In this document: piece by piece, positions 34,421 through 47,269 of the stretch
Numbering within the stretch: position 1 is the stretch's first letter
How the letters are laid out: each line of letters opens with the position of its first letter
From: Elusimicrobia bacterium GWB2_63_16
Lineage (GTDB): Bacteria; Elusimicrobiota; Elusimicrobia; Elusimicrobiales; UBA9959
DNA: 47,269 bases
Direction: 5' to 3'
NCBI GenBank assembly: GCA_001799715.1
Contig: MGTZ01000048.1
Location: 1,747-49,015, forward strand
Notes under the pieces: model-generated
Databases searched by the model: none
Seen by the model: the letters and a program-made list of their open reading frames with translations, nothing else
What the model was told of the DNA's origin: nothing
Made by a program: the position numbers and the translations under genes

Positions 34421-34446
34421 AAAACCCCGCGTTGGCGCGGGGTTTT
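34421..34446. terminator. Bidirectional rho-independent terminator
   Basis: A perfect 11-bp stem AAAACCCCGCG / CGCGGGGTTTT with a 4-base loop gives A-runs and T-runs on both sides. It can serve both the symporter (+) and the convergent YtxH-like gene (-). Confidence 0.92.
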
Positions 34447-34465
34447 CGTTTTGAACCGGGCAGTC

Positions 34466-34687: not shown

Positions 34688-34726
34688 GGTGTCCTCCAGG
34701 TAAATTCGGTACTACTTACCCTAGAT

Positions 34727-34753
34727 ATTATACATTGCCGCGCCCTTTGTCAA
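34727..34753 (-). promoter_or_regulatory. Promoter of the YtxH-like gene
   Basis: On the minus strand, TTGACA (34753-34748) and TATAAT (34732-34727) are both perfect consensus hexamers, but the spacer is 15 bases, shorter than ideal. It interleaves with the divergent promoter at 34735-34763. Confidence 0.6.
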
Positions 34754-34763
34754 ACACTATAAT
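34735..34763 (+). promoter_or_regulatory. Promoter giving a probably leaderless mRNA
   Basis: TTGCCG (34735-34740), 17 bases, TATAAT (34758-34763). The downstream gene starts at ATG 34772, only 8 bases past the -10 box, so transcription should start at or within about two bases of the start codon. No Shine-Dalgarno is present. Confidence 0.65.
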
Positions 34764-34771
34764 ACTCAATA

Positions 34772-36040
34772 ATGAACGGCCTTATCCTGTGCCTGGCCCT
34801 GCTGCTGCCGGCCCCCGCCGGGGCCTACCCGCATGACGCCGCGCTGGGCGCCAAACTCAAGCGGGAGTTCGCCGTGCAGCTCTCCTCCTCCGCCGCCGGG
34901 CGGGAGCTTTACGCGCGCCTGGAGAAAACGAAGAAATACAAGGCCCTGCGCGTGCTGGTACGCCGCGACAAGGGGGACGCTTTCGCCTGGTTCGACCCGG
35001 ACGCCAACGCCGTCTATTTCAATTCCAGGTTCATCCTGAAGTTCTTCGACGCCAAGGGGTTCAGCGGGGCGCAGGTGGTGGAGGTGCTGTGGAGCAATAA
35101 GAAGGTGCGCGCCGAACTTGTGAAATACGCCCACCCCATCTACCTGCACGAGCTGGTGCACGCGCTGCAGTGCTACCTGTACCCCGAGTACCGGCAGGAC
35201 GCCGGCGCCAACCCGCTGGAATTCGAGTACGAGGCCTACCTCACCGAGGACATGTATATACACGAGCGCATGAAGGCGGATCCGGCCCTGTTGCGCGAGT
35301 TCATCCGCGGCAGCTACACCGATATTTATACCGACACCGTCTTCGGCACTTATTTCGACCTCTCCCTGGACCCCGAAAAATACCGCGAGAAGATCCGGCG
35401 CCACTACGAGGAGCGCCTGGGCGGCTACCTGAGCATGCACGAGGCGGCCGAAAAGCGGCAGGCCGGCCTGGCGGATTCCAAGATCCTGGCCTACGCCGGC
35501 GGCCGGGTGGGGGAATACGCCAAGGACAAGAAGTCCCTGGAGCGGCTGCGCCGGGAGAAGGCCGCCTACGCCGCCTTCCTGGAGGATTTCTACAGGTCCC
35601 GCTGGCCGGCTTTCAGCGCCGACGCGCTGCTTTTCGTGGGGGGGATAGCGCTGGAGGAGAAGAACTATCCGCTGGCGCTGGACTGCCTGGCCGTGGCCGA
35701 CGCCAACGCCGCGAAGCACGGGCTGACTCCGGAGGCGCTGGCCGCGCTCAAGACCAAGGGGGCCGTGGCCGTCCTGGAGGCCGCCGCCTTCGTGCGTGAC
35801 GAGCAGGCCAAAATGGACACCGAGACGCTGGCCCAGCACCTGAAGGCGCTGGAGCGGGCCTGCGGAGCCACCGGCCGCCCTTTCCCCGAGGAGCTGCGGA
35901 CCCTGCGCGCCGCGAACTACCCCAAGGCTATGCTGTTCTACTCCGAAAAACTATCGGCCGAGCGGGACCCCGCGCGCCGGGATTATTACAGGGAAAACCT
36001 GGACTTTTTCTCGGCCGGGGCCGCCTCGCCGCAGGATTGA
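34772..36040 (+). CDS. Putative secreted zinc metallopeptidase (HExxH)
   Basis: The 422-residue product has a signal peptide (MNGLILCLALLLPAPAGAYP). The HExxH motif is HELVHALQ (His126, Glu127, His130). About 22 residues later EFEYEAYLTED offers an E-x-E-A-like element that could supply the third zinc ligand, as in peptidase families with HELxHALQ...EGEA patterns. The C-terminal half is helical, with TPR-like stretches (LFVGGIALEEKNYPLALDCLAVADA). I do not recognise a named family and the substrate is unknown. It is transcribed from a leaderless-type promoter and is separated from the downstream BMC operon by its own gap and promoter. Confidence 0.72.
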   Translation: MNGLILCLALLLPAPAGAYPHDAALGAKLKREFAVQLSSSAAGRELYARLEKTKKYKALRVLVRRDKGDAFAWFDPDANAVYFNSRFILKFFDAKGFSGAQVVEVLWSNKKVRAELVKYAHPIYLHELVHALQCYLYPEYRQDAGANPLEFEYEAYLTEDMYIHERMKADPALLREFIRGSYTDIYTDTVFGTYFDLSLDPEKYREKIRRHYEERLGGYLSMHEAAEKRQAGLADSKILAYAGGRVGEYAKDKKSLERLRREKAAYAAFLEDFYRSRWPAFSADALLFVGGIALEEKNYPLALDCLAVADANAAKHGLTPEALAALKTKGAVAVLEAAAFVRDEQAKMDTETLAQHLKALERACGATGRPFPEELRTLRAANYPKAMLFYSEKLSAERDPARRDYYRENLDFFSAGAASPQD

Positions 36041-36060
36041 CCGCCTTTTCTCTTTTTTTC

Positions 36061-36089
36061 TTGAAACACGGGGTTTAATTAAGTAGATT
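36061..36089 (+). promoter_or_regulatory. Promoter for the aminotransferase / microcompartment operon
   Basis: TTGAAA (36061-36066), exactly 17 bases, then TAGATT (36084-36089). The leader is about 35 bases and carries GGGAGG (36121-36126) before ATG 36132. I saw no cobalamin riboswitch or other obvious leader structure. Confidence 0.6.
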
Positions 36090-36131
36090 ATTTTATAGGC
36101 GTAGCCGCATACCAGTCAGCGGGAGGAACTT

Positions 36132-37361
36132 ATGATCGACATCGCTAAGAACATCGCCACCACCCCCAGACGCACCAAAGCTTCGGTCATCCGCGAGCTG
36201 CTCAAGACCACCAACGTCCCCGGCATCATCTCCTTCGCCGGCGGCCTGCCCGCCCCCGACCACTTCCCCTACGATTTCGTCTCCGACGCGGTCAAGCGCA
36301 TCATGGACAAGAACGGGCGCGTGGCCCTGCAGTACGGCCCTACCGACGGCCTGCCGGAGCTCAAGGAAGAGTTCATCAAGTTCCTCAAGAAGTATGAGAA
36401 CATCGACGCCAAGCCGGAGAATCTCATTATTACCACCGCCAGCCAGCAGGCGTTGGACATGGTGGGCCGCCTGTTCATCGACGCCTCCGACCCCGTCCTC
36501 GTGGAGAAGCCCAGCTATATGGGCGCGCTGCAGGTGTTCCGCTCCTACGGCGCCGAGTTCATCGGCGTCAAGCTGGAGGACGACGGCATCAGCACCGTCG
36601 AGCTGGAGGAGAAGCTGCAGTGGCTGCACGACCAGGACGAGCATTACAAGTTCCTCTACCTCGTGCCGGATTTCCAGAACCCCAGCGGCGTGACGCTGTC
36701 CGAGGAGAAGCGCCGGAAGGTCATCGAGCTCTCCGAGAAATACAACGTGGCCGTGATCGAGGACTCTCCCTACCGCCAGATCCGCTTCGAAGGCACCGAG
36801 CCCAAGATGCTTTACCGCCTGGACAAAGAGACCCACAAGACCGACAACGTCATCTCGCTGTTCACTTTCTCCAAAACCTTCGCCCCCGGCCTGCGCCTGG
36901 GCATCATCCTCGGCCACCCGCAGATCATCAAGAAGATGGAGATCCTCAAACAGTCGCTGGACCTCTGCACGTCGAGCCTCAACCAGCTCATCGCCGCCGA
37001 GTTCCTGCGCACCGGCTACTTCGAAAAGCACATCGAAGTGGTCAAGAAAGATTACCGCATCAAGAAAAACGCCATGGTGAGCGCGCTGGAGAAGTACATG
37101 CCCGAGGGCGTCACCTGGACCAACCCGGAGGGCGGCCTGTTCCTGTGGGTGCGCCTGCCCGAGCAGATGAGCGCCGACGACATGTTCCAGGACGCGCTCA
37201 AGGAGAACGTGGCCTACGTGATAGGCTCGGCGTTCCACTCCGACGGCTCCGGCAAGAACACGATGCGCCTGAACTTCTCTTTCGCCACGCCCGAAAAGAT
37301 AGACGAGGGCATCAAGCGCCTGGCTGCCACGGTCAAGAAGCGCCTGGTCGGCGCCAGATAA
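36132..37361 (+). CDS. PLP-dependent class I/II aminotransferase (2-aminoadipate/LysN-like)
   Basis: The 409-residue protein has fold type I aminotransferase features: ISFAGGLPAPDHFP near the start, LQYGPTDGLPELKE, ITTASQQALDMV, the cofactor region LVPDFQNPSGVT and EDSPYRQIRF, and the PLP-binding lysine in TFSKTFAPGLRLG. It most resembles the LysN/2-aminoadipate or MocR-derived aminotransferase group; the substrate cannot be read from sequence. It has a strong GGGAGG ribosome binding site, and its stop lies 10 bases before the PduS-like gene. It therefore seems to be the first gene of the microcompartment operon, an unusual partner. It has no encapsulation peptide, so it is probably cytosolic. 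Confidence 0.88.
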   Translation: MIDIAKNIATTPRRTKASVIRELLKTTNVPGIISFAGGLPAPDHFPYDFVSDAVKRIMDKNGRVALQYGPTDGLPELKEEFIKFLKKYENIDAKPENLIITTASQQALDMVGRLFIDASDPVLVEKPSYMGALQVFRSYGAEFIGVKLEDDGISTVELEEKLQWLHDQDEHYKFLYLVPDFQNPSGVTLSEEKRRKVIELSEKYNVAVIEDSPYRQIRFEGTEPKMLYRLDKETHKTDNVISLFTFSKTFAPGLRLGIILGHPQIIKKMEILKQSLDLCTSSLNQLIAAEFLRTGYFEKHIEVVKKDYRIKKNAMVSALEKYMPEGVTWTNPEGGLFLWVRLPEQMSADDMFQDALKENVAYVIGSAFHSDGSGKNTMRLNFSFATPEKIDEGIKRLAATVKKRLVGAR

Positions 37362-37371
37362 AAATCACTGA

Positions 37372-38718
37372 ATGACCGATCTCTCGGCCGAATTCAGCCG
37401 CAGCCTGCGAGCCGCCGGAGTAGTCGGAGCCGGCGGCGCGGGTTTTCCCTCCTACGTGAAAGCGCAGGGCCGCGCCGAATTCGCGCTGGTCAACGCCGCG
37501 GAATGCGAGCCGCTGCTCAAGAAGGACCAGAAGATCCTGGAGTATTTCCCGGAGAAGGTCTTCGACGGGCTGGAACTGCTGATGCGGGCCGTCGGGGCTT
37601 CCAAAGGCGTGCTCGGCATCAAGAAGAAGCACGAAGAGATCATCCCGCGCCTCAAAGAGATCGCGAAGTCCCGCAAGAACATTTCCATCCTCGAGATGGG
37701 CGACTATTACCCGGCCGGCGACGAGCAGTGCCTGGTCTACGAGGCCACGGGCCGCATCGTGCCGCCCGGCGGCATCCCGCTGGAAGTCGGCTGTGTGGTG
37801 GCCAACGTGGAGACGCTCTATAACGCCTCCTTCGCCCCGCGCCCCGTCACCGAAACCTTCGTCACCGTGAACGGCGGCGTAAAGAAACCCGCCACCTTCC
37901 GCGTGCCCGTCGGGGTGACCTGGCGCGAGTGCGTGGAGAATTTCTGCGGCGGCTTCACGGTGAAGGACCCCGCGTATATCGACGGCGGGCCGATGATGGG
38001 TAAAGTGCAGACCGATTTCGACCTGCCGCTGGTGAAGGCCTCCGGCGGCATCATAGTGCTCCCGAAAGACCACCCCCTTATCGTCAAGAAGGCGCAGAGC
38101 CGCCAGACGTTCACCCGCATCGGCCGCTCCGCCTGCGACCAGTGCTCCTACTGCACCGAGTTCTGCCCGCGCTACCTGCTGGGCCACAACGTGCAGCCGC
38201 ACCGCGTGATGCGCACCATGCTATTCGCCGGCGGGCCCGAGCACAAGCTGCACAGCCAGTACGGCCTGCTCTGCTGCGAGTGCTCGCTGTGCTCGCTCTA
38301 CTCCTGCCCCGAGGGCCTGCACCCGCGCGAGGCCTGCGTCTCCGCCAAGGCGGACCTGCGCGAGCAGAAGGTCGGCTTCAAGAATTCGCCGCTCAATACC
38401 GGCAAAAAACCGGAGGTGCACCCGGTGCGGGATTTCCGCAAGGTGCCGGTCTCCAAACTGGTGCGCCGGCTCGGCCTGGAGGACTACAACAAGCCCGCCC
38501 CCTGGAACGCCGCCTCCTGCGCGCCGGCAAGCGTTAAGATTTTAATGAGCCAGCATATCGGCGTCCCCTGCGTCCCGGCGGTGAAAGAGGGACAGCGTGT
38601 GGAGAAGGGCGCCGTGGTGGGGGACGTTCCCGCCGACAAGCTCGGCTGCCCGGTGCACGCGAGCATCTCCGGCACCGTGCGCAAAGTAAACGAACGCTAT
38701 GTGGAGATAATCGCTTAA
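37372..38718 (+). CDS. pduS: PduS/RnfC-like flavin and iron-sulfur NADH oxidoreductase
   Basis: The 448-residue protein is homologous to PduS and to the RnfC/Nqo1 electron-input family. It has a Gly-rich nucleotide/FMN loop (GVVGAGGAGFPSYVK), NAAECEPLL, and two 4Fe-4S ferredoxin motifs: Cys255-x2-Cys258-x2-Cys261-x3-Cys265-Pro and Cys301-x2-Cys304-x2-Cys307-x4-Cys312-Pro. A C-terminal lipoyl/sandwich-like domain follows (VKEGQRVEKGAVVGDVP...HASISGTVRKV). In Pdu systems PduS reduces cobalamin, but no B12-dependent enzyme exists here. I infer that it oxidises NADH and passes electrons on, probably through the adjacent BMC-T with a pore cysteine. Confidence 0.9.
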   Translation: MTDLSAEFSRSLRAAGVVGAGGAGFPSYVKAQGRAEFALVNAAECEPLLKKDQKILEYFPEKVFDGLELLMRAVGASKGVLGIKKKHEEIIPRLKEIAKSRKNISILEMGDYYPAGDEQCLVYEATGRIVPPGGIPLEVGCVVANVETLYNASFAPRPVTETFVTVNGGVKKPATFRVPVGVTWRECVENFCGGFTVKDPAYIDGGPMMGKVQTDFDLPLVKASGGIIVLPKDHPLIVKKAQSRQTFTRIGRSACDQCSYCTEFCPRYLLGHNVQPHRVMRTMLFAGGPEHKLHSQYGLLCCECSLCSLYSCPEGLHPREACVSAKADLREQKVGFKNSPLNTGKKPEVHPVRDFRKVPVSKLVRRLGLEDYNKPAPWNAASCAPASVKILMSQHIGVPCVPAVKEGQRVEKGAVVGDVPADKLGCPVHASISGTVRKVNERYVEIIA

Positions 38719-38726
38719 GGTCCATT

Positions 38727-39275
38727 ATGCTAAATGCTATCGGAGGCGTAGAACTTTCCAGCGTGGCCAAGGGCATGGAAGCGGCCGACGCCATGCTTAA
38801 AACCTCGAATATTAAATTGATACTTTCGCGGTCCATCTGCGCGGGCAAGTATATAGCGCTGATAGCGGGCGATGTGGGCGCCGTCAACGCCGCCGTGGAA
38901 GCCGGCTCCGCGAAGGCGGCCCATTCCCTGGTGGACAGCTTCGTCATCCCCAACATCCACCCCGAGGTGTTCCCGGCCATAGAGGGCACCACCGTGGTGG
39001 ACGGGCTTGAGTCCCTGGGCATTATAGAAGCTTTCTCGGTCGCGGCCCTGATCGAGGCCGCAGACGCGGCGGTAAAGGCCGGCAATGTGAAACTGCTGGA
39101 GATACGCCTGGCCATGGCCCTGGGCGGCAAGGCTTTCGTTACTATGACCGGCAGCGTCGCCGCCGTTGAAACCGCCGTGGCCGCCGGCGCCGCCGTAGCC
39201 GGCAAAAAAGGCCTGCTGGTGGAGAAGGTGGTCATTCCCCAGCCCAGGCAGGAACTGCTGCGGGAGATCATTTAA
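38727..39275 (+). CDS. pduT: BMC-T shell protein, PduT-like, with Fe-S pore cysteine
   Basis: The 182-residue protein contains two tandem BMC domains (about 4-88 and 94-180), the second starting LESLGIIEAFSVAALIEAADA. Cys38, in SRSICAGKY, sits where PduT carries the cysteine that holds a 4Fe-4S cluster in the centre of the trimer pore. It immediately follows the PduS-like gene (8-base gap), as expected for an electron-transfer pair across the shell. The other BMC-T of the locus has Ser at this place. Confidence 0.93.
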   Translation: MLNAIGGVELSSVAKGMEAADAMLKTSNIKLILSRSICAGKYIALIAGDVGAVNAAVEAGSAKAAHSLVDSFVIPNIHPEVFPAIEGTTVVDGLESLGIIEAFSVAALIEAADAAVKAGNVKLLEIRLAMALGGKAFVTMTGSVAAVETAVAAGAAVAGKKGLLVEKVVIPQPRQELLREII

Positions 39276-39279
39276 TGCC

Positions 39280-39340
39280 GGGGACAGACGTCTTGTCTTT
39301 GGCGGCCAGGTTTTTTCAGACAGGGCAGACGTCTGTCCCC
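39280..39340. repeat. REP-like inverted repeat between pduT and tpiA
   Basis: Perfect 14-bp arms GGGGACAGACGTCT (39280-39293) and AGACGTCTGTCCCC (39327-39340) enclose 33 bases. The arms are not followed by a T-run. The sequence style recalls REP/RAYT-associated repeats that I remember from other genomes, but no search was possible. Confidence 0.75.
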
Positions 39341-39347
39341 AGTATTG

Positions 39348-39353
39348 TATAAT
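39348..39353 (+). promoter_or_regulatory. Possible -10 box upstream of tpiA
   Basis: An exact TATAAT in an AT-rich patch after the inverted repeat, with AAGGAG (39362-39367) before ATG 39377. No good -35 hexamer is visible, so an internal promoter is only possible. Confidence 0.35.
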
Positions 39354-39376
39354 TGATTAATTAAGGAGACTCGAAC

Positions 39377-40156
39377 ATGGCTTCCAACAAACGCGTTCCG
39401 ATGATAGCCGGCAACTGGAAAATGCACCTTACTTCCAAGGAGGCCGCCGACCTGGCCGCCGCCATGCGCAAAGGCCTGGACCCGGACCTGAAGCACGAAG
39501 TACTGCTCGCCCCCACTTTCACCAACCTGCACGCCGTCAAGGCCGCCATCGCCGGCTCCAAAATACTGCTCGCCTCCCAGGACGTGGCCTGGGAAGAAAA
39601 GGGCGCCTTCACCGGCGCGGTTTCCCCGGCCCAGATCATAGACGCGGGCTGCACGCACGCCATCATCGGACACAGCGAGCGCCGCAAGATCTTCCTCGAG
39701 ACCGACGAGGTCATCAACAAGAAGATGAAAGCCGCCATAAAGGCCAATATCGTCCCCGTGCTCTGCATCGGCGAGACGCTGGAGGAGCGCGAGAGCCAGC
39801 GCACCTACCGCGTGCTCGAGACCCAGCTGACCGGCGCCTTCGCCGGCATCACCGCCGCCGAGGCCGCCCGCGTGGTCATCGCCTACGAGCCCGTGTGGGC
39901 CATCGGCACCGGCAAGACCGCCACCCCCGACCAGGCGCAGGACGCCCATGTTTTCGTCAGGAAGCAGATGGAGCGCATTTACGGCAAGGATTACGCCGAG
40001 GCCGTGCGCGTGCTCTACGGCGGCTCCGTGAAGGCCGACAACGTGGACGAACTGATGGCGCAGCCCGACATCGACGGCGCGCTGGTGGGCGGCGAGAGCC
40101 TCAAGGCCGACAAGTTCCTGCGCGTGATACATTTCCAGACCGTGCTGAGCAGGTAA
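39377..40156 (+). CDS. tpiA: Triosephosphate isomerase
   Basis: The 259-residue enzyme interconverts glyceraldehyde-3-phosphate and dihydroxyacetone phosphate. Family motifs are complete: AGNWKMHLT with the catalytic Lys, GHSERR with the catalytic His, AYEPVWAIGTGKTA with the catalytic Glu and loop 6, and LYGGSVKADN and ALVGGESL for phosphate binding. There is no N-terminal encapsulation peptide. It lies 1 base before pduL. In this locus it would process the triose released by the aldolase, directing it into glycolysis. Placement of tpiA inside a microcompartment operon is unusual. Confidence 0.95.
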   Translation: MASNKRVPMIAGNWKMHLTSKEAADLAAAMRKGLDPDLKHEVLLAPTFTNLHAVKAAIAGSKILLASQDVAWEEKGAFTGAVSPAQIIDAGCTHAIIGHSERRKIFLETDEVINKKMKAAIKANIVPVLCIGETLEERESQRTYRVLETQLTGAFAGITAAEAARVVIAYEPVWAIGTGKTATPDQAQDAHVFVRKQMERIYGKDYAEAVRVLYGGSVKADNVDELMAQPDIDGALVGGESLKADKFLRVIHFQTVLSR

Positions 40157-40157
40157 A

Positions 40158-40790
40158 ATGGACGAGCGGCTGCTGAAAGAGATACTCGAGGACCTGAAAC
40201 TCCGGCAGGAGCGTTCCGCCCTGCCCGTCCCCGTGGGTATTTCCAACCGGCACGTCCATCTCACCAAGGAAGATTTCAAGACCCTCTTCGGCGCGGACTG
40301 CGACGACACGCGGCTCAAGCCGGTAAAGCAGCCTGGCCAGTACGCCTGCAACGAGCGGGTGACGGTGGAGGGGCCCAAGGGCGCCCTCAAGGACGTCCGG
40401 ATGATAGGCCCGTACCGCAAGTACAGCCAGGTGGAAGTCTCCCTGGGCGACGCGCGGCGCCTGGGCGTGGAGCCCCCGATACGCGACTCCGGCAAGCTGG
40501 AGAATACGCCCGGCATCCGGCTCGTCGGGCCCAAGGGGTCCGTAACGATCAGGCAGGGCCTGATCCTGTCCAAGCGCCACATACATTTCAACGTGAAGGA
40601 AGGCGCGGCGTATAAAGTTAAGGACGGCCAGGAAGTGCGCGTGCTTTGCGGCCGCGGCACGGAGCGGGAGACCATCTTCGAGCGGGTGCTGTGCCGCGTC
40701 TCCGACGCCTACTCGCTGGAGCTGCACCTCGACGTGGAAGAGGCCAACGCCGCCGGCCTCAGGAACGGCGACCCCGCGTTCATAGTCTGA
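40158..40790 (+). CDS. pduL: PduL-type phosphotransacylase
   Basis: The 210-residue zinc enzyme converts acetyl-CoA and phosphate to acetyl-phosphate and CoA, recycling CoA inside the shell. Two PduL domains show metal-binding NRHVHLT (about 30-36) and KRHIHFN (about 142-148). The first 18 residues (MDERLLKEILEDLKLRQE) form an amphipathic helix of encapsulation-peptide type, followed by a linker. It starts 1 base after tpiA, so the two are coupled. Confidence 0.93.
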   Translation: MDERLLKEILEDLKLRQERSALPVPVGISNRHVHLTKEDFKTLFGADCDDTRLKPVKQPGQYACNERVTVEGPKGALKDVRMIGPYRKYSQVEVSLGDARRLGVEPPIRDSGKLENTPGIRLVGPKGSVTIRQGLILSKRHIHFNVKEGAAYKVKDGQEVRVLCGRGTERETIFERVLCRVSDAYSLELHLDVEEANAAGLRNGDPAFIV

Positions 40791-40827
40791 TTTTCGGTAA
40801 TTTAGTTTAGGTTGACTGGAGGATAAA

Positions 40828-41112
40828 ATGGAAGCACTCGGAATGATAGAGACCAAGGGCCTCGTGGCCTGCGTGGAAGCCGCCGACGCCTCGGTGAAGG
40901 CCGCCAACGTTAAGATCGTCGGCTACGAGAAGATCGGTTCCGGCCTCGTGACCATCCTTTTCCGCGGCGAAGTGGCCGCCTGCCGCGCCGCCTGCGACGC
41001 CGGCGCCGCCGCCGCCCAGAAAGTGGGCGAGCTGGTGAGCGTGCACGTGATCCCGCAGCCCCACGGCGACCTGGAAGGCAAGCTGCCGATCAGCGACGCG
41101 AAGAAGAAGTAA
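40828..41112 (+). CDS. BMC-H hexameric shell protein (first copy)
   Basis: The 94-residue single BMC domain starts [20 protein letters not shown] and has the hexamer pore segment [11 protein letters not shown]. These proteins tile the facets of the shell. GGAGG precedes ATG 40828. A strong hairpin with a short T-run directly follows the gene. The C-terminus (SDAKKK) is short and basic. It is closely similar to the second BMC-H at 45512, both with the KIGSG pore. Confidence 0.96.
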
Positions 41113-41125
41113 ACCGGATCCGCGC

Positions 41126-41159
41126 GGCGCAGGGGGCTTCCGGCCCCCCGCGCCCTTTT
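41126..41159 (+). terminator. Terminator-like hairpin after the first BMC-H gene
   Basis: GGCGC-A-GGGGGC (41126-41137) pairs with GCCCCC-C-GCGCC (41143-41154), 11 pairs with one mismatch and a 5-base loop, followed by CTTTTC. Inside the operon it may act as a partial terminator or protect the upstream mRNA from 3' decay. Confidence 0.6.
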
Positions 41160-41175
41160 CCCTGACGGAGGAATC

Positions 41176-41484
41176 ATGCTATTCGCACGAGTAGTGGGCA
41201 ACGTGGTCTGCACCCGCAAGGACGACAAGCTCGTCGGCACCAAGCTGCTGATGGTGCAGCCGGTGGGCCTCGACGACAAGCCGCGCGGCAATACGCTCGT
41301 CGGCATAGACGCCGTGGGCGCCGGCACCGGCGAGCTGGTGCTGCTGGTGCAGGGCTCGAGCGCCCGCCAGACCAGCAAGACCGAGAACACCCCGGTCGAC
41401 TGCACCGTCTTCGCGATCGTCGACACGATAGAGAAGGACGGCAAGATAGTCTTCAAGAAATCTTCGGATAAGTTCCAGGACTAA
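41176..41484 (+). CDS. BMC-P pentameric vertex protein (EutN/CcmL), copy 1
   Basis: The 102-residue protein begins LFARVVGNVVCTRKDDKLVGTK and contains the EutN/CcmL core LMVQPVGLDD...GIDAVGAGTGELVLL and VDTIE. Pentamers of this family cap the shell vertices. GGAGG precedes the start. It ends 1 base before the aldehyde dehydrogenase gene. Confidence 0.95.
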   Translation: MLFARVVGNVVCTRKDDKLVGTKLLMVQPVGLDDKPRGNTLVGIDAVGAGTGELVLLVQGSSARQTSKTENTPVDCTVFAIVDTIEKDGKIVFKKSSDKFQD

Positions 41485-41485
41485 T

Positions 41486-42898
41486 ATGCCCCTGAGCGAA
41501 GAAGACCTGAAGAAGATAGTGGCCGAGGTGGTGCGCAACCTGGGCGCGGCCCCGGACGCGCCCGTCTCCGCCGCCGGCGGGCCGGTGTTCGACACCGTGG
41601 ACCAGGCGGTAGGCGCCGCCAACGCCGCGCAGCCCGGCTTCCAGGACCTGGGCCTGGTGGCGCGCGAAAAGATCATCGCCGCCATGCGCGAGGTGTCGCG
41701 CCAGAACGCCCGCCGCTGGGCCGAGCTGGCCGTGGCCGAGACCGGCATGGGCCGCGTGGAGGACAAGGTCCTCAAGAACATGGTCTGCATCGACGGGACC
41801 CCGGGCGTGGAAGACCTGCGCGCCGTGTCCTATACCGGCGACAAGGGGCTTACCCTGGTGGAATACGCCCCTTTCGGCGTGGTGGCGGCCATTACGCCGT
41901 CGACTAACGCCGTAGCTACGATCATCAGCAACGCCATCGGGATACTTTCCGCCGGCAATGCCGTCGTATTCTCGCCGCATCCCGCCGCCAAGGGCTGCGT
42001 GGCCGACGCCGTGCGCGTCCTCAATTCCGCGATAGTCGCCGCCGGCGGGCCGGCCAACCTGGTGAGCACGATAGCCAAGCCCACGCAGGAAGCGACCAAG
42101 CAGCTGCTGTCCCATCCGAACACCCACATGAACATCGTCACCGGCGGCCCGGCCATCGTTAAAGTGGCCATGACCTCCGGCAAGCCCTGCAAGACCATCG
42201 CCGCCGGCCCCGGCAACCCGCCTATAGTGGTGGACGAGACCGCGGTGTTCCCGGACTGCGCCCGGGAGATCATTTACGGCTGCGGCTTCGACAACAACGT
42301 GCTGTGCATCGCCGAGAAAGAGGTCATCGTGACCGAGGCCGCGCGCGCCCGTTTCCTGGAAGCCATGCGCTCGGACCCCCGCGCCTGCGAACTGTCCGGC
42401 TCTCAGATGGACGCGCTCTCCAAGCTCATTATCCTGGAACCCGGTCCCGAGCCCAAGATCAACCGGGACTTTATAGGCAAGAACCCGTCGGTGATAGCTA
42501 AGGCCGTAGGTCTGAGCCTCTCCGACGACATCCGCGTGCTGTGGGCCGAGGTGCCCAACGACCACCCGCTGGTCCACGCCGAGCAGCTGATGCCGGTGCT
42601 GCCCGTGACCGTGGCCCGCGACGTGGACGCCGCCATAGAGCTGGCCCGCCGCGCCGAGGGGAATAACCACCACTCGGCCGGGATGTATTCGACCAATATC
42701 AGGAACATGACCAAGATGGGCCGCCGCATGGCCTGCTCCATCTTCGTCAAGAACGGCTGCACGCTGCACGGCCTCGGCCTGGGCGAGGGCTACGCCTCGA
42801 TGTCCATCGGCACCCCTACGGGAGACGGTATCACCAAGACCAGCCATTTCGTGCGCCCGCTGCAGTGCAGCGTAGTCGGCGATCTGAGAATTGCTTAA
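41486..42898 (+). CDS. pduP: CoA-acylating aldehyde dehydrogenase (PduP/EutE type), encapsulated
   Basis: The 470-residue enzyme oxidises an aldehyde, here probably acetaldehyde, to acyl-CoA with NAD. Family features are the catalytic Cys274 in NNVLCIAEKEV, the cofactor region ITPSTNAVATIISNAIG, and GGPAIVKVAMTSGKP. The N-terminal helix LSEEDLKKIVAEVVRNLG followed by a Pro/Ala linker is a textbook encapsulation peptide, very similar to that of the aldolase in this locus. It starts 1 base after a BMC-P gene. Confidence 0.95.
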   Translation: MPLSEEDLKKIVAEVVRNLGAAPDAPVSAAGGPVFDTVDQAVGAANAAQPGFQDLGLVAREKIIAAMREVSRQNARRWAELAVAETGMGRVEDKVLKNMVCIDGTPGVEDLRAVSYTGDKGLTLVEYAPFGVVAAITPSTNAVATIISNAIGILSAGNAVVFSPHPAAKGCVADAVRVLNSAIVAAGGPANLVSTIAKPTQEATKQLLSHPNTHMNIVTGGPAIVKVAMTSGKPCKTIAAGPGNPPIVVDETAVFPDCAREIIYGCGFDNNVLCIAEKEVIVTEAARARFLEAMRSDPRACELSGSQMDALSKLIILEPGPEPKINRDFIGKNPSVIAKAVGLSLSDDIRVLWAEVPNDHPLVHAEQLMPVLPVTVARDVDAAIELARRAEGNNHHSAGMYSTNIRNMTKMGRRMACSIFVKNGCTLHGLGLGEGYASMSIGTPTGDGITKTSHFVRPLQCSVVGDLRIA

Positions 42899-42907
42899 GG
42901 AGCTTAT

Positions 42908-43456
42908 ATGCAGGCCAATATAGCCGTGGGTTTGATCGAACTCTCCTCGATAGCCAAAGGCATCGAGACCCTGGACGCCATGTGCAAGGCCGCCGGCGTG
43001 AAGCCGGAGGTGCACCAGGCTATCTCCAAGGGGAAATACATCATCGTGATCTCCGGCCCCGTCGGCGAGGTGGAATCCTCTCTGGCCAAAGGCGCGGAGA
43101 CAGCCGGCAACACGGCCATAGCCCGCCACATCATCCGCAACATCCACGCCGGAGCGCTGGCCGCCCTCAATAAGAAGGTCAAGGCCGCGAAGATAGAGGC
43201 CGTGGGCATGGTGGAGACCAAGGAGGCCCTGCCGGCGCTGTTTGCCGCCGACGCGGCCGCCAAGGCCGCCTTCGTGCACGTGGCCGAAGTGAACACCGGC
43301 AAAGGCATAGGCGGCAAGGGTTACTTTACCGTGGTCGGCGAGCCGGGAGCCGTGCGCACGGCAGTCGCCGCCGGGGTCAAGGCCATCGGCGAGGACGCGG
43401 TGGTAAGCCGCATTGTGATACCCAACGCGCACGAGCATATCGGCGCGGCGATATAA
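42908..43456 (+). CDS. BMC-T tandem-domain shell protein (second copy)
   Basis: The 182-residue protein has two BMC domains: VGLIELSSIAKGIETLDAM for the first and EAVGMVETKEALPALFAADA for the second. It is a paralogue of the PduT-like protein at 38727, but the pore cysteine is replaced by Ser40 (AISKGKY), so it should not bind an Fe-S cluster there. It more probably forms an ordinary metabolite pore. An AAGGAG ribosome binding site lies just after the aldehyde dehydrogenase stop. Confidence 0.94.
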   Translation: MQANIAVGLIELSSIAKGIETLDAMCKAAGVKPEVHQAISKGKYIIVISGPVGEVESSLAKGAETAGNTAIARHIIRNIHAGALAALNKKVKAAKIEAVGMVETKEALPALFAADAAAKAAFVHVAEVNTGKGIGGKGYFTVVGEPGAVRTAVAAGVKAIGEDAVVSRIVIPNAHEHIGAAI

Positions 43457-43469
43457 CCGGGGGATTTAT

Positions 43470-43916
43470 ATGAGAATAGTAATAGGCGCAGATCACGCTG
43501 GTTTCGACGCTAAAGAGCGGCTCAAGAAGTTCCTGCAGAAGCTCGGCCACGACGTCACCGACTTCGGCTGCTATTCCACCGAGCCGGTGGATTTTCCGGA
43601 CATAGCGCTGCTGGTCAGCGAGGCCGTGCGCCGCAAGGAATTCGACAAGGCCGTGCTGGTGGACGGCTTCAACGGGGCCATGCCGCTGGCGGCCAACAAG
43701 GTGCCCGGCATCCGCGCCGTGGCCGCCTACGACACCATCTCGGCCCGCTTCGCCGCGGCGCACGAGGACTGCAACGTGCTCTGCCTGGGCGGCAAGACGC
43801 ACGGCGAGCTGGCGCTCGAGGAAATGATCAAGGTCTGGCTCAACACCCCTTTCGAGGGCGGCAAGTACCAGAAGCGCCTGGACAAGATCACCGCGATAGA
43901 GCAGCGCTGCTGCTGA
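43470..43916 (+). CDS. rpiB: RpiB/LacA-family sugar-phosphate isomerase with altered active site
   Basis: The 148-residue protein matches RpiB: IGADHAGFDAKERLKKFL at the start, YPD-like region DFPDIA, LAANKVPGIRAVAAYD, the conserved His98 in AAHEDCNVLCLGG and a C-terminal helix. The usual catalytic loop CGTGIG is DGFNGA here, so the base Cys becomes Asp65. Some RpiB enzymes use Glu in place of this Cys, so activity is possible, perhaps on a different sugar phosphate. The C-terminus ends in two Cys residues. There is no obvious encapsulation peptide. RpiB-like genes are a hallmark of SPU-type loci. Confidence 0.88.
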   Translation: MRIVIGADHAGFDAKERLKKFLQKLGHDVTDFGCYSTEPVDFPDIALLVSEAVRRKEFDKAVLVDGFNGAMPLAANKVPGIRAVAAYDTISARFAAAHEDCNVLCLGGKTHGELALEEMIKVWLNTPFEGGKYQKRLDKITAIEQRCC

Positions 43917-43922
43917 GGCACG

Positions 43923-44219
43923 ATGAAACAGGCCAAGGTCATAGGAAGGGTCTTCTGCTCGCGCCAGTGCTGCGGCATGGAGTCGAAGACGCTGCTTCTG
44001 ATCCAGCCGCTGGACTGGGAGACCGACAAGCCCGCCGGGGACCCGCTGGTGGCCGGCGATACCGTAGGGGCCGGGGCGGGGGAGACCGTATTTTTCGTGG
44101 CCTCGCGCGAGGCCATAGTGGCCTTCGAGGGCTGGGAGGGCGAGACGGCCGCCAAGGCCGCGCCGCCGCCGGTGGACGCCGCGATAGTGGGCATCATAGA
44201 CGGCAAGAAGCTGGGATAA
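43923..44219 (+). CDS. BMC-P pentameric vertex protein, copy 2, Cys-rich N-terminus
   Basis: The 98-residue EutN/CcmL-family protein starts AKVIGRVFCSRQCCGMESKT, then LLLIQPLDWETDKPAG, and has GDTVGAGAGETVFFV and VGIIDGKKLG. Three cysteines (residues 12, 16, 17) lie where the family usually has ATRKHE-type residues, a region near the pentamer pore. It starts 6 bases after rpiB and is followed at once by a third BMC-P. Confidence 0.92.
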   Translation: MKQAKVIGRVFCSRQCCGMESKTLLLIQPLDWETDKPAGDPLVAGDTVGAGAGETVFFVASREAIVAFEGWEGETAAKAAPPPVDAAIVGIIDGKKLG

Positions 44220-44225
44220 ATTTTT

Positions 44226-44504
44226 ATGTTCGTAGCTAAAGTAATAGGGAACGTCTGGGCGACACGCAAGCACCCGGGGCTCAAGGGGGCCACGATGCTG
44301 CTGGTCAAGCCGCTGGGCGCCGACGGCAAGCCCGCCGGCGAGGCGCAGCTGGCCATAGACGGCCAGGGCGCCGGCGTCGGCGACACCGTGCTGATAGTCG
44401 ACGAGGGCGGCTCCGCCAGGAAGATCCTGAAGAATTCTAAAGCGCCGGTGCGCACCGTGATAGCCGGCATCGTGGACAAAGTACACATTACCGGGAAGGA
44501 CTAA
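44226..44504 (+). CDS. BMC-P pentameric vertex protein, copy 3
   Basis: The 92-residue protein is the most typical EutN/CcmL member of the three: [54 protein letters not shown] and GIVDKVHI. It starts 6 bases after copy 2 and ends 4 bases before deoC. Confidence 0.95.
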
Positions 44505-44508
44505 AATT

Positions 44509-45489
44509 ATGAACGACGAAGATATAAAGAAGATAGCGGCCGAGGTGGCCAGGATAATGAAGGCCGGCGGCCAGAGCGCCCCCAGGCAGAGCCTGGGCGA
44601 TTCCGTCAGCATCGGGTCGGCGGGGAAAGTCTTTCAGCACCCGCTCGTGAACCGGGAGGGCTCCCCGGAAAAGAAGGCCTGCTCCGGGCAGGGCGATTGC
44701 CGCCTGGAAGAGAACACCTGTTCCTCCTCGTGCCAGAGCTGCAACCCGCTCAATAAATATACGCCGCAGCAGATCAAGGCCAGCGCCGACCGCGTCAGCT
44801 TCTGCAACCCCAACGAGAAGAGTTCCTCTATCGCCGGCATGATCGACCATACCCTGCTCAAGGCCAACGCCACGCAGGAAGAGATCGGCAAGCTCTGCGA
44901 AGAGGCCCGCAAGTACCGCTTCGCCTCGGTCTGCGTGAACCCCGGCTACGTCGCGCTGGCCAGCCGCCTGCTGCGCGGCTCCTCCGTGATGGTCTGCACC
45001 GTCATCGGCTTCCCGCTGGGCTCCACGACCCCCACGGTTAAGGCCATCGAAGCCCGCGACGCCATGGCCAACGGCGCCGACGAGATAGACATGGTCATCA
45101 ATATCGGCGCGCTCAAGAGCGGCAACGACCAGCTGGTGCTCGACGATATCAAGGCCGTGCGCGAGGCCACCCGCGGCAAATGCCTTAAGGTGATCCTCGA
45201 GACCTCGTACCTGACCAAGGACGAGAAGATCCGCGCCTGCAAGATGAGCAAGCAGGCCCAGGCCGACTTCGTAAAGACCTCCACCGGTTTCGGCTCCGGC
45301 GGCGCCACCCCCGAGGACATAGCGCTGATGCGCGAAACCGTCGGCCCCGAGATGGGCGTGAAGGCCTCCGGCGGCATCAAGAACGCCGAGGTGGCCGCGG
45401 CGATGGTGAAGGCCGGCGCCACGCGCCTCGGCACCAGCGCCAGCATAGCCATAGTTTCCGGGGGCGAAGCCGCCAAGGGCCAGTATTAA
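44509..45489 (+). CDS. deoC: Deoxyribose-phosphate aldolase with encapsulation peptide and Cys-rich linker
   Basis: The 326-residue class I aldolase cleaves 2-deoxyribose-5-phosphate to acetaldehyde and glyceraldehyde-3-phosphate. Family motifs are [44 protein letters not shown] and the Schiff-base lysine Lys256 in [10 protein letters not shown]. Standard DeoC has about 220-260 residues. Here about 105 extra residues precede the barrel: an amphipathic helix ([18 protein letters not shown], encapsulation-peptide type), a linker, and a cysteine cluster (Cys58, 64, 71, 75, 78). The cluster could bind metal or an iron-sulfur centre. The helix strongly resembles that of the aldehyde dehydrogenase, so both should share a binding site on the shell. 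Confidence 0.95.
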
Positions 45490-45511
45490 TTTGCGGTAAC
45501 AAGGAGCGATT

Positions 45512-45808
45512 ATGTCCGAACCGAAAGAAGCGCTGGGAATGATAGAGACCAAGGGTTTCATAGGCATGATAGAGGCCTCTGACGCCATGAGCAAGGCCGC
45601 CAAGGTGCGCCTGATCGGCTACGAGAAGATAGGTTCCGGCTACGTGACCACGCTGTGCGTGGGCGAAGTCGGCGCCGTGCGTGCCGCCGTGGAAGCCGGA
45701 GCCGCCGCCGCGCAGAAGGCCGGGGAGCTGGTCGGGATGCACGTGATACCGCGCCCCGCCGACGACCTGGACAAGTACCTCGCCAAGATCTCGGTAAAGG
45801 TTTCTTAA
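45512..45808 (+). CDS. BMC-H hexameric shell protein (second copy)
   Basis: The 98-residue single BMC domain ([20 protein letters not shown], pore [11 protein letters not shown]) is a paralogue of the protein at 40828 with a longer N-terminus (MSEPK) and a different tail ([15 protein letters not shown]). AAGGAG precedes the start. A hairpin of GC pairs follows directly. Confidence 0.96.
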
Positions 45809-45834
45809 GCGCGCCCGCTTAAGACCCGGCGCGC
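45809..45834 (+). other. GC-rich hairpin after the second BMC-H gene
   Basis: GCGCGCC (45809-45815) pairs with GGCGCGC (45828-45834) around a 12-base loop, starting right at the BMC-H stop codon. There is no T-run, so it is not a normal terminator. It parallels the hairpin after the first BMC-H gene. Confidence 0.5.
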
Positions 45835-45858
45835 CCCTGGGGCCGCCGGGACAGACCC

Positions 45859-46101
45859 ATGCTGACCAAAGGCGCGGTGGAAGATCTCATCTACGAGCAC
45901 CTGTCCCGGGCGGACCGGGGCGGCGCCGCGCCCGCGGGTAAAAAGCCCGCGCCCGTAAAGAAAACTTTCATAAGCGACTGGGAACTGCGCCGTCTCTATA
46001 AACCGGGCTCCAGCAGCGTCGCGGTACCCGTCAACGCCATACTCAGCCCGCTGTCGCTGGACTGGCTGGACTACAACGGCGTCAAGGTTGTGCGCAATTG
46101 A
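45859..46101 (+). CDS. Small BMC-associated protein of unknown function
   Basis: The 80-residue protein has an N-terminal amphipathic helix (MLTKGAVEDLIYEHLSRA) that could be an encapsulation peptide, a Pro/Ala/Lys linker, and a compact C-terminal segment FISDWELRRLYKPGSSSVAV...LSPLSLDWLDYNGVKVV. That segment resembles the short module at the N-terminus of EutT-type proteins (a W/L-R-x-x pattern, then V-x-L-P-x-x-x-x-L-T-P-x-A-x-x-x-L-x-x-x-x-I-x-V), but nothing else of an adenosyltransferase is present. It is the last gene before the terminator at 46101. Possible roles are cargo adaptor, scaffold or shell-binding factor; none can be shown from sequence. Confidence 0.75.
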   Translation: MLTKGAVEDLIYEHLSRADRGGAAPAGKKPAPVKKTFISDWELRRLYKPGSSSVAVPVNAILSPLSLDWLDYNGVKVVRN

Positions 46102-46122
46102 AGCGGCCTGCCGCCGCTTTTT
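46101..46122 (+). terminator. Rho-independent terminator closing the BMC locus
   Basis: The stem AAGCGGC / GCCGCTT with a 5-base loop (46101-46119) is followed by TTT. It overlaps the final base of the 80-residue gene. Confidence 0.8.
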
Positions 46123-46166: not shown

Positions 46167-47269
46167 ATGAGGATACTCGCCGTTGTTTTAGCGTTGTCAT
46201 GGACGGCCGCGCTGGGTTGCGCGCCGCTCGCCGCGCAGCAGTACATCGACCCGGAGGAGGCCGCCGAGCTCCAGCTGCCCGGTGAGGAACAGCCCGCCGC
46301 GGAGCAGCCCGCCGCCGCGCCGGCAGCCCGGCCCGCCGCGGCCCCTGCCGTGATACAGCCTACGCTCTCCCCGGCCGAAGCTCTTAAAAAGTACGAATGG
46401 GAGTTCCTCAGTTCGCGCGCCGCCGCCACCGACGAGGACGCGTTGAAGCTCCTGTTGCCTCACCTGGAGGACTGGCTGGCCGCGAACCCGGAACACGCCG
46501 CCGCGGCGGAGGCGCTTCTGCTCAAGGCCGGGCTGCAGTATAAACTGGGCGACCACAGATCCGCCCTCGTAAGCCTGCTCAAACACCTGCAGGCCTACCC
46601 CGAAGCCGATTCCTCGGAGCGGGCCCGCCGCCTTTTTAACGAGATAGCGGCCAAGAAGGCCGACAAGAAGCTCAGGCCCGTGCTGGCCGACGCGGCCGAA
46701 CAGCCCGAGGTGAACGCGCCCGAACTGAACATTTCGATGATGCTGGAGAAGCTGGCGGCCGAGGCCGGCGAGGAATATTACGAGGCGCTCGCGGCCGAGT
46801 TCCGTTCTTTCTTCGCCCGGTTCCCGGGGTACGCCAGGAACGACGCCGTGCGCCTGTCGCTGGCCGACCTGTACCGCCTTAACGGCGAATACACCGCGGC
46901 CCGCCTGGCCTACGAGAAGGCGATAGCCCTGCACCCGGCCAGCCCGCTGCTGGCCAAAGCCAAACTGGCGCTGGCCAACGTGCTGGCCGACAACCTGAAG
47001 GAGTATGACAGCGCCATCGCCGCTTACCAGGACATCGCCGCCTCCTTCCCCGGCACCGATGAGGCCTGGGCCGCCTACGGCCGCCTTCCCGCCCTGGCCG
47101 AGCGCCAGAAGAAATACGCGCTGGCCGTGGAAATCGACGAGAAGGTCATAGAGCTTTACCCCGACAAGCCCGAGGCCTACCAGGCCTACCGCGCCGCGGC
47201 CCGCGTGCTGCGCGAGGACCTGAAGAAGCCGCAGGAGGCGATAGCGGTGCTGGGCAGGCTGGCCGACAA
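46167..47269 (+). CDS. TPR-containing lipoprotein (3' end outside window)
   Basis: The frame from ATG 46167 stays open to the end of the window, giving at least 367 residues. The first residues (MRILAVVLALSWTAALGC, then APLAAQQYIDPEEA) form a lipoprotein signal with Cys18. A Pro/Ala/Gln-rich linker follows (about 30-70), then helical repeats with TPR character, for example LYRLNGEYTAARLAYEKAIALHP, KEYDSAIAAYQDIAASFPG and KKYALAVEIDEKVIELYP. It resembles outer-membrane TPR lipoproteins of the BamD/YbgF type in general layout, without a specific match. AGGAGA lies just upstream. An overlapping ATG at 46162 meets a stop at once and is not the start. Confidence 0.8.
   Translation, partial: MRILAVVLALSWTAALGCAPLAAQQYIDPEEAAELQLPGEEQPAAEQPAAAPAARPAAAPAVIQPTLSPAEALKKYEWEFLSSRAAATDEDALKLLLPHLEDWLAANPEHAAAAEALLLKAGLQYKLGDHRSALVSLLKHLQAYPEADSSERARRLFNEIAAKKADKKLRPVLADAAEQPEVNAPELNISMMLEKLAAEAGEEYYEALAAEFRSFFARFPGYARNDAVRLSLADLYRLNGEYTAARLAYEKAIALHPASPLLAKAKLALANVLADNLKEYDSAIAAYQDIAASFPGTDEAWAAYGRLPALAERQKKYALAVEIDEKVIELYPDKPEAYQAYRAAARVLREDLKKPQEAIAVLGRLAD

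What the first reader, a model, noticed from the sequence alone, without database searches (positions are those of the whole stretch)
36132..46122. Complete sugar-phosphate-type microcompartment built around a deoxyribose-phosphate aldolase
Seven shell genes, PduP-type dehydrogenase, PduL, DeoC and an RpiB-like protein stand together with tpiA, a PduS-like protein and an aminotransferase. The set predicts deoxyribose-5-phosphate breakdown with acetaldehyde confined in the shell, acetyl-phosphate as product and the triose passed to glycolysis. SPU-type BMCs are known from surveys but few have been studied, and the extra tpiA, aminotransferase, PduS/PduT pair and 80-residue protein make this version distinctive.
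Basis: partly seen in the sequence, partly recalled or inferred. Interest (0 to 1): 0.85.

Follow-up and report, generated by a model that had tools for sequence, protein, structure and literature searches.

The report
SPU microcompartment with an altered isomerase
This is a protein-shelled bacterial compartment of a known type, predicted to break down the sugar of DNA; the new point is that its "ribose-5-phosphate isomerase" has lost the key catalytic cysteine, so that enzyme's accepted role needs testing.

Summary
Window 36132-46101 carries 15 same-strand genes of an Elusimicrobiota genome: seven shell genes (2 BMC-H, 2 BMC-T, 3 BMC-P), aldehyde dehydrogenase, PduL, DeoC, an RpiB-like protein, TpiA, PduS, an aminotransferase and an 80-residue protein. 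It is an SPU-type locus, a known kind. TpiA and PduS were already noted in a 2014 SPU locus; TpiA is the genome's only one, not an extra.

Three results go further. (1) A same-genus genome (G155) has lost, at this locus, all shell genes, AldDH, the RpiB-like gene, PduS and p80, and with them DeoC's N-terminal extension; TpiA, PduL and the bare DeoC barrel remain. (2) The RpiB-like protein has Asp in place of catalytic Cys-65. Among 30 Chloroflexota loci fetched by RpiB alone, 19 of 20 Asp-type genes lie beside deoC, against 0 of 10 Cys-type. (3) DeoC's linker carries G[ST][ASG]GK[VILM]F in 45 of 49 distinct shell-locus DeoCs (close variants in 3 more) and in 0 of 9 shell-less ones.

Deoxyribose-phosphate breakdown is the best reading. 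What the Asp-type "RpiB" does is open; ring-opening for DeoC is the boldest option.

The parts
36132..37361 (+). class I/II PLP aminotransferase; family-restricted neighbour, probably not part of the shell pathway
   Evidence: Pfam PF00155 5e-42; best NCBIfam MocR/PdxR-like, below cut-off; in 10 of 60 loci; kept in shell-less G155
37372..38718 (+). PduS-like RnfC-family NADH/flavin iron-sulphur oxidoreductase
   Evidence: Complex1_51K, RnfC_N, Fer4_17; RnfC chains best in PDB; lost with the shell at the G155 locus
38727..39275 (+). BMC-T shell trimer, PduT-like, Cys38 (codon 38838-38840) at the position of the PduT cluster cysteine (role recalled)
   Evidence: two PF00936 domains; PDB best 3nwg 1.6e-57, PduT 3n79 1e-50; cysteine aligned in the two alignments printed, 3nwg and 3pac; Cys in 23 of 25 homologues
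39377..40156 (+). triosephosphate isomerase, the only one found in the genome
   Evidence: PF00121 4.9e-93; one hit in G000, hits in 31 of 32 genus genomes
40158..40790 (+). PduL phosphotransacylase with a helix-like N-terminus (by eye)
   Evidence: PF06130 2.2e-69; NF011652 over cut-off; N-terminus different in shell-less G155
40828..41112 (+). BMC-H shell hexamer 1
   Evidence: PF00936 5.2e-28
41176..41484 (+). BMC-P shell pentamer 1
   Evidence: PF03319 7.1e-31
41486..42898 (+). CoA-acylating aldehyde dehydrogenase (EutE/PduP subfamily) with N-terminal encapsulation-peptide-like helix (by eye)
   Evidence: NF011927 subfamily 559 bits, cut-off 403; lost with the shell at the G155 locus
42908..43456 (+). 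BMC-T shell trimer 2, without the PduT cysteine
   Evidence: two BMC domains; PDB best 3nwg 1.8e-32; not Cys at this place in 44 of 45 homologues
43470..43916 (+). RpiB/LacAB-fold protein of Asp-type ('RpiB-D')
   Evidence: PF02502 1.4e-44; alignments
43662..43664 (+). codon of Asp65 in place of the catalytic Cys of RpiB/LacB
   Evidence: Cys role from PMC3755991
43923..44219 (+). BMC-P shell pentamer 2
   Evidence: PF03319 4.3e-21
44226..44504 (+). BMC-P shell pentamer 3
   Evidence: PF03319 4e-28
44509..45489 (+). deoxyribose-phosphate aldolase DeoC: N-terminal extension of about 108 residues plus barrel
   Evidence: TIGR00126 equivalog 294 bits, cut-off 117, residues 108-316; PDB DERA 5dbu 9.1e-82; model
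44515..44562 (+). encapsulation-peptide-like helix, DeoC residues 3-18
   Evidence: AlphaFold2 helix 3-18, pLDDT below 50 at 20-73
44614..44634 (+). linker motif GSAGKVF, DeoC residues 36-42
   Evidence: strict motif in 45 of 49 distinct shell-locus DeoCs, close variant in 3 more; 0 of 9 shell-less
44680..44742 (+). cysteine cluster of the DeoC linker, Cys58-Cys78
   Evidence: at least two Cys in the last 75 residues before the barrel in 43 of 49; none before the barrel in 9 of 9 shell-less
45512..45808 (+). BMC-H shell hexamer 2
   Evidence: PF00936 7.7e-27
45859..46101 (+). p80: helix, linker and a small C-terminal domain like parts of other BMC accessory proteins
   Evidence: in 40 of 60 loci; C-terminus matches TIGR02536 at 9.4e-4, below cut-off; model helix 4-16 plus small domain, mean pLDDT 78.5

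Best explanation
A sugar-phosphate-utilisation (SPU) metabolosome that breaks down 2-deoxyribose-5-phosphate. [quoted passage not shown] The shell holds the acetaldehyde while AldDH makes acetyl-CoA and PduL makes acetyl-phosphate, which a cytosolic acetate kinase can turn into ATP. Glyceraldehyde-3-phosphate leaves and joins glycolysis through the cell's only TpiA. NADH is reoxidised through PduS and the PduT-like shell trimer, or NAD is exchanged through the shell, since no alcohol dehydrogenase is in the locus. Shown here: gene content, order, family membership, conserved DeoC residues, extension lost with the shell. Inferred: shell formation, cargo, direction of flux, electron route. The RpiB-like protein belongs to this pathway but is not a standard ribose-5-phosphate isomerase: its catalytic Cys is Asp.
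For: Families. DeoC passes the deoC equivalog cut-off; D194, K256 and K285 are invariant in 22 of 22 aligned relatives (that these are the DERA catalytic residues is recalled). DeoC is single-copy in 32 of 32 genus genomes. A near-full-length acetate kinase is in G000 and in 27 of 32 genus genomes, split in one more, only weak partial hits in four; pyrimidine-nucleoside phosphorylase in 30 of 32, 29 over the cut-off. Natural loss in G155: aligned blocks 30447-37349, 39376-40772, 44833-45474, 46502-47269; what lies between is gone, that is the shell genes, PduS, AldDH, RpiB-D, p80 and DeoC codons 1-108. Eight further shell-less DeoCs also lack the extension. BMC-P (of any BMC type) in 124 of 340 phylum genomes. 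Literature proposal: PMC8217296, PMC4207490 (passages).
Against: No wet evidence. DeoB (TIGR01696) reaches the cut-off in 0 of 32 genus genomes, with partial hits in 29, so the step that makes dR5P from deoxynucleosides is not identified. G000's one Fe-ADH lies on another contig (28 of 32 genus genomes have one). The same enzymes could run in reverse (PMC6281690). In isolated Atribacterium RT761, with a BMC-linked DeoC, no BMC-like bodies were seen by electron microscopy (PMC7736352, passage).
Confidence: 0.75

Rival explanations
1. The compartment runs in reverse: AldDH reduces acetyl-CoA to acetaldehyde as an NADH sink, and DeoC condenses it with glyceraldehyde-3-phosphate into deoxyribose-5-phosphate as a store (Nobu 2016, as told in PMC6281690).
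For: Same enzymes and reversible reactions; proposed for Atribacteria (passages). Genomes of this genus carry acetate kinase and Fe-ADH genes that fit a fermenting cell in need of an NADH sink.
Against: PduL and PduS/PduT fit an oxidative metabolosome better (inference); TpiA lies beside bare DeoC, with no AldDH recognised at those loci, in shell-less relatives, which fits catabolism.
Confidence: 0.15
2. RpiB-D is an active aldose-ketose isomerase that uses Asp65 (or another carboxylate) as base, on ribose-5-phosphate or another sugar phosphate, so the compartment also takes ribose units.
For: A carboxylate base is known: Glu75 in M. tuberculosis RpiB (PMC3755991). D8 (86 of 86), H9 (85 of 86), H98 and R136 (86 of 86 each) are kept in Asp-type sequences. 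Some Elusimicrobiota loci have a Cys-type RpiB alone (6) or in tandem with the Asp-type (13).
Against: The enediolate site is also altered: Thr/Ser67 lost in 76 of 86, Gly70 to Ala in 52 of 86. A canonical RpiB is encoded elsewhere in the genome. An isomerase on a ribose phosphate has no place in a dR5P route, because dR5P has no 2-hydroxyl.
Confidence: 0.35
3. RpiB-D is a ring-opening helper that hands DeoC the open-chain aldehyde of dR5P.
For: Ring-opening His98 and binding residues kept while the C2-proton base is changed. dR5P is 99.8% furanose and the open-chain aldehyde is the reactive form (PMC5975929). Precedent: YhcH opens the ring for an aldolase of the same operons (PMC8141875). RpiB-D lies beside deoC in several phyla.
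Against: PMC5975929 argues that dR5P ring opening is fast enough not to be rate-limiting. G155 keeps DeoC but lost RpiB-D. Asp, rather than any small residue, is kept, which suggests a chemical role for the carboxylate.
Confidence: 0.2
4. RpiB-D is a LacA-like partner that has no activity alone and pairs with a Cys-type RpiB.
For: LacA has Asp at the aligned position while its partner LacB has the Cys; 13 SPU loci carry both types in tandem.
Against: The window locus has no Cys-type partner; the genomic Cys-type RpiB lies on another contig. Of the 60 fetched stretches, a second RpiB-like gene is recognised in 13.
Confidence: 0.15
5. The locus makes no working compartment and the enzymes act in the cytosol.
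For: I found no imaging of such bodies in this phylum, and none were seen in Atribacterium RT761.
Against: Shell genes are open frames without stops here and BMC-P genes are kept in 124 of 340 phylum genomes; the DeoC extension disappears when the shell does.
Confidence: 0.05

Closest known systems
SPU (sugar phosphate utilisation) BMC loci, Axen 2014 and Sutter 2021
   Same: DeoC-type PF01791 aldolase, PF02502 protein, AldDH, PduL, BMC shell; TIM and PduS in the Atribacteria founder locus
   Different: PduT-like trimer and family-restricted aminotransferase; two BMC-T of 182 residues, both nearest in the PDB to 3nwg/PduT-type chains rather than the CsoS1D/CcmP type reported for several SPU subtypes; the catalytic Cys of RpiB replaced by Asp, which the passages read do not mention
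RpiB ribose-5-phosphate isomerase
   Same: family; Asp8, His9, His98, Arg136; passes NF004051
   Different: Cys65 to Asp, Thr67 to Phe, Gly70 to Ala; below the TIGR01120 equivalog cut-off
LacA/LacB galactose-6-phosphate isomerase
   Same: Asp in LacA at the aligned position; Asp-type and Cys-type tandem pairs in 13 related loci
   Different: no Cys-type partner in the window locus
PDU and EUT metabolosomes
   Same: AldDH, PduL, PduS and PduT-like parts; p80 domain weakly like EutT/TIGR02536
   Different: aldolase instead of a B12 enzyme; no alcohol dehydrogenase in the locus

Membership tests
SPU BMC | DeoC-type PF01791 aldolase in a shell locus | tested here: met
SPU BMC | PF02502 (RpiB-type) protein in the locus | tested here: met
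   PF02502 1.4e-44; the family is met, the catalytic Cys is not
SPU BMC | AldDH and BMC-H, BMC-T, BMC-P shell genes | tested here: met
SPU BMC | assignment to subtype SPU1-SPU7 by the catalogue's shell and locus HMMs | not testable with these tools
   those HMMs and the supplements are not available; nearest PDB chains of both BMC-T are 3nwg/PduT-type
Metabolosome core | AldDH + phosphotransacylase + alcohol dehydrogenase in the locus | tested here: not met
   no alcohol dehydrogenase among the 15 genes; Fe-ADH elsewhere in the genome
RpiB isomerase | catalytic Cys-65 (LacB numbering) | tested here: not met
   Asp65
RpiB isomerase | NCBIfam equivalog TIGR01120 cut-off | tested here: not met
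   129.9 bits against 138.65
RpiB isomerase | isomerase activity on ribose-5-phosphate | not testable with these tools
   needs an assay
LacAB | heteromer of Asp-type and Cys-type subunits encoded together | tested here: not met
   one PF02502 gene in the locus; tandem pairs only in relatives
PduT | Cys38 at the cluster-ligand position (role recalled) | tested here: met
   printed alignments with PDB 3nwg and 3pac
PduT | TIGR02526 cut-off | tested here: not met
   126.5 bits against 250.3
Encapsulated cargo (DeoC) | N-terminal helix and disordered linker, lost when the shell is lost | tested here: met
   packing itself not shown

The most novel reading that the evidence does not exclude
The signature 'ribose-5-phosphate isomerase' of SPU microcompartments is not an isomerase. 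It is an RpiB-fold enzyme whose proton-abstracting Cys was exchanged for Asp and which now opens the furanose ring of 2-deoxyribose-5-phosphate (or does another step on it) to feed DeoC inside the shell, in several phyla. DeoC is held there by a helix plus a second, newly seen linker motif.
Probability: 0.2. Interest if true: 0.75.

Novelty: new member of a known kind. Interest (0 to 1): 0.5.

Why it matters
[quoted passage not shown] If its second signature enzyme is not a ribose-5-phosphate isomerase, the accepted pathway drawing is incomplete, and automatic annotation (the protein passes an NCBIfam RpiB model) misleads. G155 gives a natural shell-loss experiment that shows which genes at the locus, and which part of DeoC, went with the shell.

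Tried and rejected
Rejected: that tpiA is an extra BMC enzyme (only TIM hit in the genome; kept without shell). Rejected: that the aminotransferase is needed for the compartment (10 of 60 loci; kept in G155). Led nowhere: p80 fold search (no PDB match at E 0.001), p80 profile against PDB sequences (best E 0.047), Pfam on p80; its likeness to EutT rests on a five-sequence HMM search (domain E 0.0013) and on a below-cut-off NCBIfam match to another Eut protein. A regular expression for encapsulation peptides caught only 16 of 49 and is not used as evidence; the helix in the window DeoC rests on the model, in others on reading. SPU subtype could not be assigned. DeoB search gave partial matches only. 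The RpiB tree puts 52 of 53 Asp-type rows on one side, but with weak support (77/77), long branches (LacA, LacB) and one exception (L217); a single origin is not shown.

Results against my reading: six loci of one family carry a Cys-type RpiB only, so the Asp-type is not universal in SPU loci; Asp also occurs in LacA, outside BMCs; four other Asp-type genes had no shell or DeoC neighbour in the fetched stretch (L208; L209, which has an AldDH; L217; L232, at a contig end). Most loci in the 135-sequence table were fetched because of a shell gene or DeoC, so only the Chloroflexota set tests adjacency freely, and it is the 30 best loci from 206 matching genomes ranked by an Asp-type profile. The motif pattern had a looser second alternative; three of its 48 hits (L152, L153, L158) lack the leading Gly, so 45 are strict. 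The motif was not seen in the SPU DeoCs of other phyla printed. In G155 only BMC-P was searched genome-wide; its BMC-H and BMC-T loss is shown at the locus only, and AldDH elsewhere in G155 was not sought. Mended on checking: acetate kinase had been given as 32 of 32; four of those are weak partial hits.


Full report
What is there. The window lies in an Elusimicrobiota genome (the best named relatives are Elusimicrobiota MAGs; G000, 2.87 Mb, 62 contigs). Between 36132 and 46101 stand 15 genes on the + strand with gaps of 1 to 101 bases: aminotransferase, PduS-like, BMC-T (PduT-like, Cys38), TpiA, PduL, BMC-H, BMC-P, AldDH, BMC-T, RpiB-like, BMC-P, BMC-P, DeoC, BMC-H and the 80-residue p80. 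All six BMC-domain hits of the genome are in this locus.

What kind it is. DeoC (PF01791) together with PF02502, AldDH and a shell is what the SPU type is known by (PMC8217296, passages: more than 280 members, 26 phyla, seven subtypes sharing the two sugar-phosphate enzymes, proposed role in using products of DNA degradation). The founding description (PMC4207490, passages) already lists TIM and PduS in the Atribacteria locus. So these are not distinctive. In the phylum, BMC-P genes of any BMC type occur in 124 of 340 genomes (79 of 191 of those at least 90% complete and at most 5% contaminated) and in 31 of 32 genomes of the genus, mostly three copies. Of 60 stretches taken at such hits, the order TpiA, PduL, BMC-H, BMC-P, AldDH, BMC-T, RpiB-like, BMC-P, BMC-P, DeoC, BMC-H, p80 recurs where contigs are long enough; PduS is recognised in 21 and the aminotransferase in 10 of the 60. 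Two of the 60 (L159, L160) look like a different BMC type, with no DeoC or RpiB recognised.

Which genes went with the shell. G155, a genus member given as 97% complete and 5% contaminated, has no BMC-P, but its locus is in one contig with both flanks conserved. Aligned to the window, blocks 30447-37349, 39376-40772, 44833-45474 and 46502-47269 remain; what lies between is gone. That removes PduS, every shell gene, AldDH, RpiB-D, p80 and the first 108 codons of deoC, and leaves aminotransferase, TpiA, PduL and a bare DeoC barrel (73% identical). PduL's N-terminus also differs. Its one PF02502 gene is the Cys-type elsewhere. Eight more DeoCs of genomes without BMC-P, fetched (one in the same family, six in a sister family, one more distant), have no extension and no cysteine before the barrel; in the six of the sister family TpiA lies next to DeoC. 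TpiA is the only triosephosphate isomerase hit in G000, and 31 of 32 genus genomes have a hit. DeoC is single in 32 of 32.

The DeoC extension. The model gives a helix at residues 3-18, low confidence at 20-73, then the barrel. In 45 of 49 distinct shell-locus DeoCs of the phylum the linker holds G[ST][ASG]GK[VILM]F, in three more a close variant, in one (L169) neither; it is absent from 9 of 9 shell-less ones and from the other 14 window proteins. In two relatives (L152, L153) a related motif is repeated three times. A cysteine cluster follows (at least two Cys in 43 of 49). Encapsulation peptides are helices joined through disordered linkers (abstract start of PMC12339742 in the search listing), and an N-terminal extension of DeoC in an Atribacteria BMC cluster was noted before (PMC7736352, passage); the linker motif was not mentioned in the passages I read.

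The RpiB-like protein. In LacB, Cys-65 is taken as the base at C2, as in RpiB, and C65A is inactive; Asp-8 and His-9 are essential; LacA His-96 (E. coli RpiB His-99) is for ring opening; M. tuberculosis RpiB uses Glu75 instead (PMC3755991, passages). The window protein has Asp65, Phe67 and Ala70 but keeps Asp8, His9, His98 and Arg136. In a table of 135 distinct family members, LacA and LacB included, 86 have Asp and 49 have Cys at this place. Of the Asp-type, 81 of 86 lie within 3 kb of a shell or DeoC gene; of the Cys-type, 19 of 49, all in Elusimicrobiota loci, 13 of them in tandem with an Asp-type and 6 alone. Most of these loci were fetched through shell genes or DeoC. A freer test searched 301 genomes of the phylum of a Chloroflexi MAG with an Asp-type profile (206 with a match) and took the 30 best loci: 20 Asp-type, 19 with deoC within the fetched 1.5 kb on either side (the other, L232, at a contig end), and 10 Cys-type, none with deoC or shell. 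In 12 named genomes of other phyla, first found through DeoC, the same profile gave 18 loci: 11 Asp-type, eight of them with a shell or DeoC neighbour, and 7 Cys-type, none with one. A canonical Cys-type RpiB is encoded elsewhere in G000. NCBIfam would still name the window protein RpiB through NF004051, while the equivalog TIGR01120 is not reached. Neither survey's passages mention the substitution; [quoted passage not shown]

What it may do. dR5P has no 2-hydroxyl, so it cannot undergo the RpiB reaction. Options are an isomerase on another sugar with a carboxylate base, a LacA-like silent partner, or a ring opener for DeoC. For the last: dR5P is 99.8% furanose and the open-chain aldehyde is the reactive form, yet the same paper argues that opening is not rate-limiting (PMC5975929, passages). 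YhcH is a tested case of a protein that provides an aldolase with the open form of its substrate (PMC8141875, abstract and outline). I give isomerase with a new base 0.35, ring opening 0.2 and silent partner 0.15.

Pathway and gaps. Acetate kinase (near full length in 27 of 32 genus genomes, G000 included; split in one; weak partial hits only in four) and pyrimidine-nucleoside phosphorylase (30 of 32) support a route from deoxynucleosides to acetate, but phosphopentomutase is not identified (0 of 32 over cut-off). No alcohol dehydrogenase is in the locus; the PduS-like protein (RnfC family) and the PduT-like trimer with its Cys38 (Cys in 23 of 25 homologues) may carry electrons out, which is inference. 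A reverse flux, as an NADH sink, has been proposed for Atribacteria (PMC6281690, passages) and is not excluded.

p80. It is recognised in 40 of 60 stretches, at the end of the locus: helix at 4-16, variable linker and a small C-terminal domain that matches the end of TIGR02536 (9.4e-4, below cut-off) and weakly the start of EutT. It looks like an adaptor or cargo; its role is open.

Verdict. A real, complete SPU locus, a new member of a known kind, widespread in its phylum. The worthwhile new points are the Asp-type RpiB, the natural shell loss and the DeoC linker motif.

Noticed in passing
L188 (G155:C68): Natural shell-less version of the locus: AT-TpiA-PduL-DeoC with both flanks conserved; DeoC starts at the barrel.
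   Followed up: yes
L126, L127, L128, L129, L162, L169: SPU loci of one family have only a Cys-type RpiB; in five of the six the DeoC was recognised, and in four of those it carries the GTAGKVF motif.
   Followed up: partly
L004, L130-L132, L152-L158, L166, L167: Tandem Asp-type and Cys-type RpiB genes in one locus, like lacA-lacB.
   Followed up: partly
L152:1586-3064, L153:14584-16131: DeoC with a long N-terminal region and three SAGK-type motifs in the linker.
   Followed up: no
L159, L160: Apparently a different BMC type in two genomes of another Elusimicrobiota family, with several BMC-H, AldDH, PduS and PduT-like genes but no DeoC or RpiB recognised.
   Followed up: no
window 32707-36040: A sodium:solute symporter and a 422-residue protein without Pfam match upstream; the DNA is conserved beside the locus even in shell-less G155.
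   Followed up: no
L129, L130, L153, L158, L162: p80 homologues here carry an extra GF-type segment (such as WGFH or GFF) before the C-terminal domain.
   Followed up: no
G384, G428, G460, G512, G544: RpiB matches in these Chloroflexota-group genomes show one in-frame stop codon (TAG, TGA or TAA).
   Followed up: no
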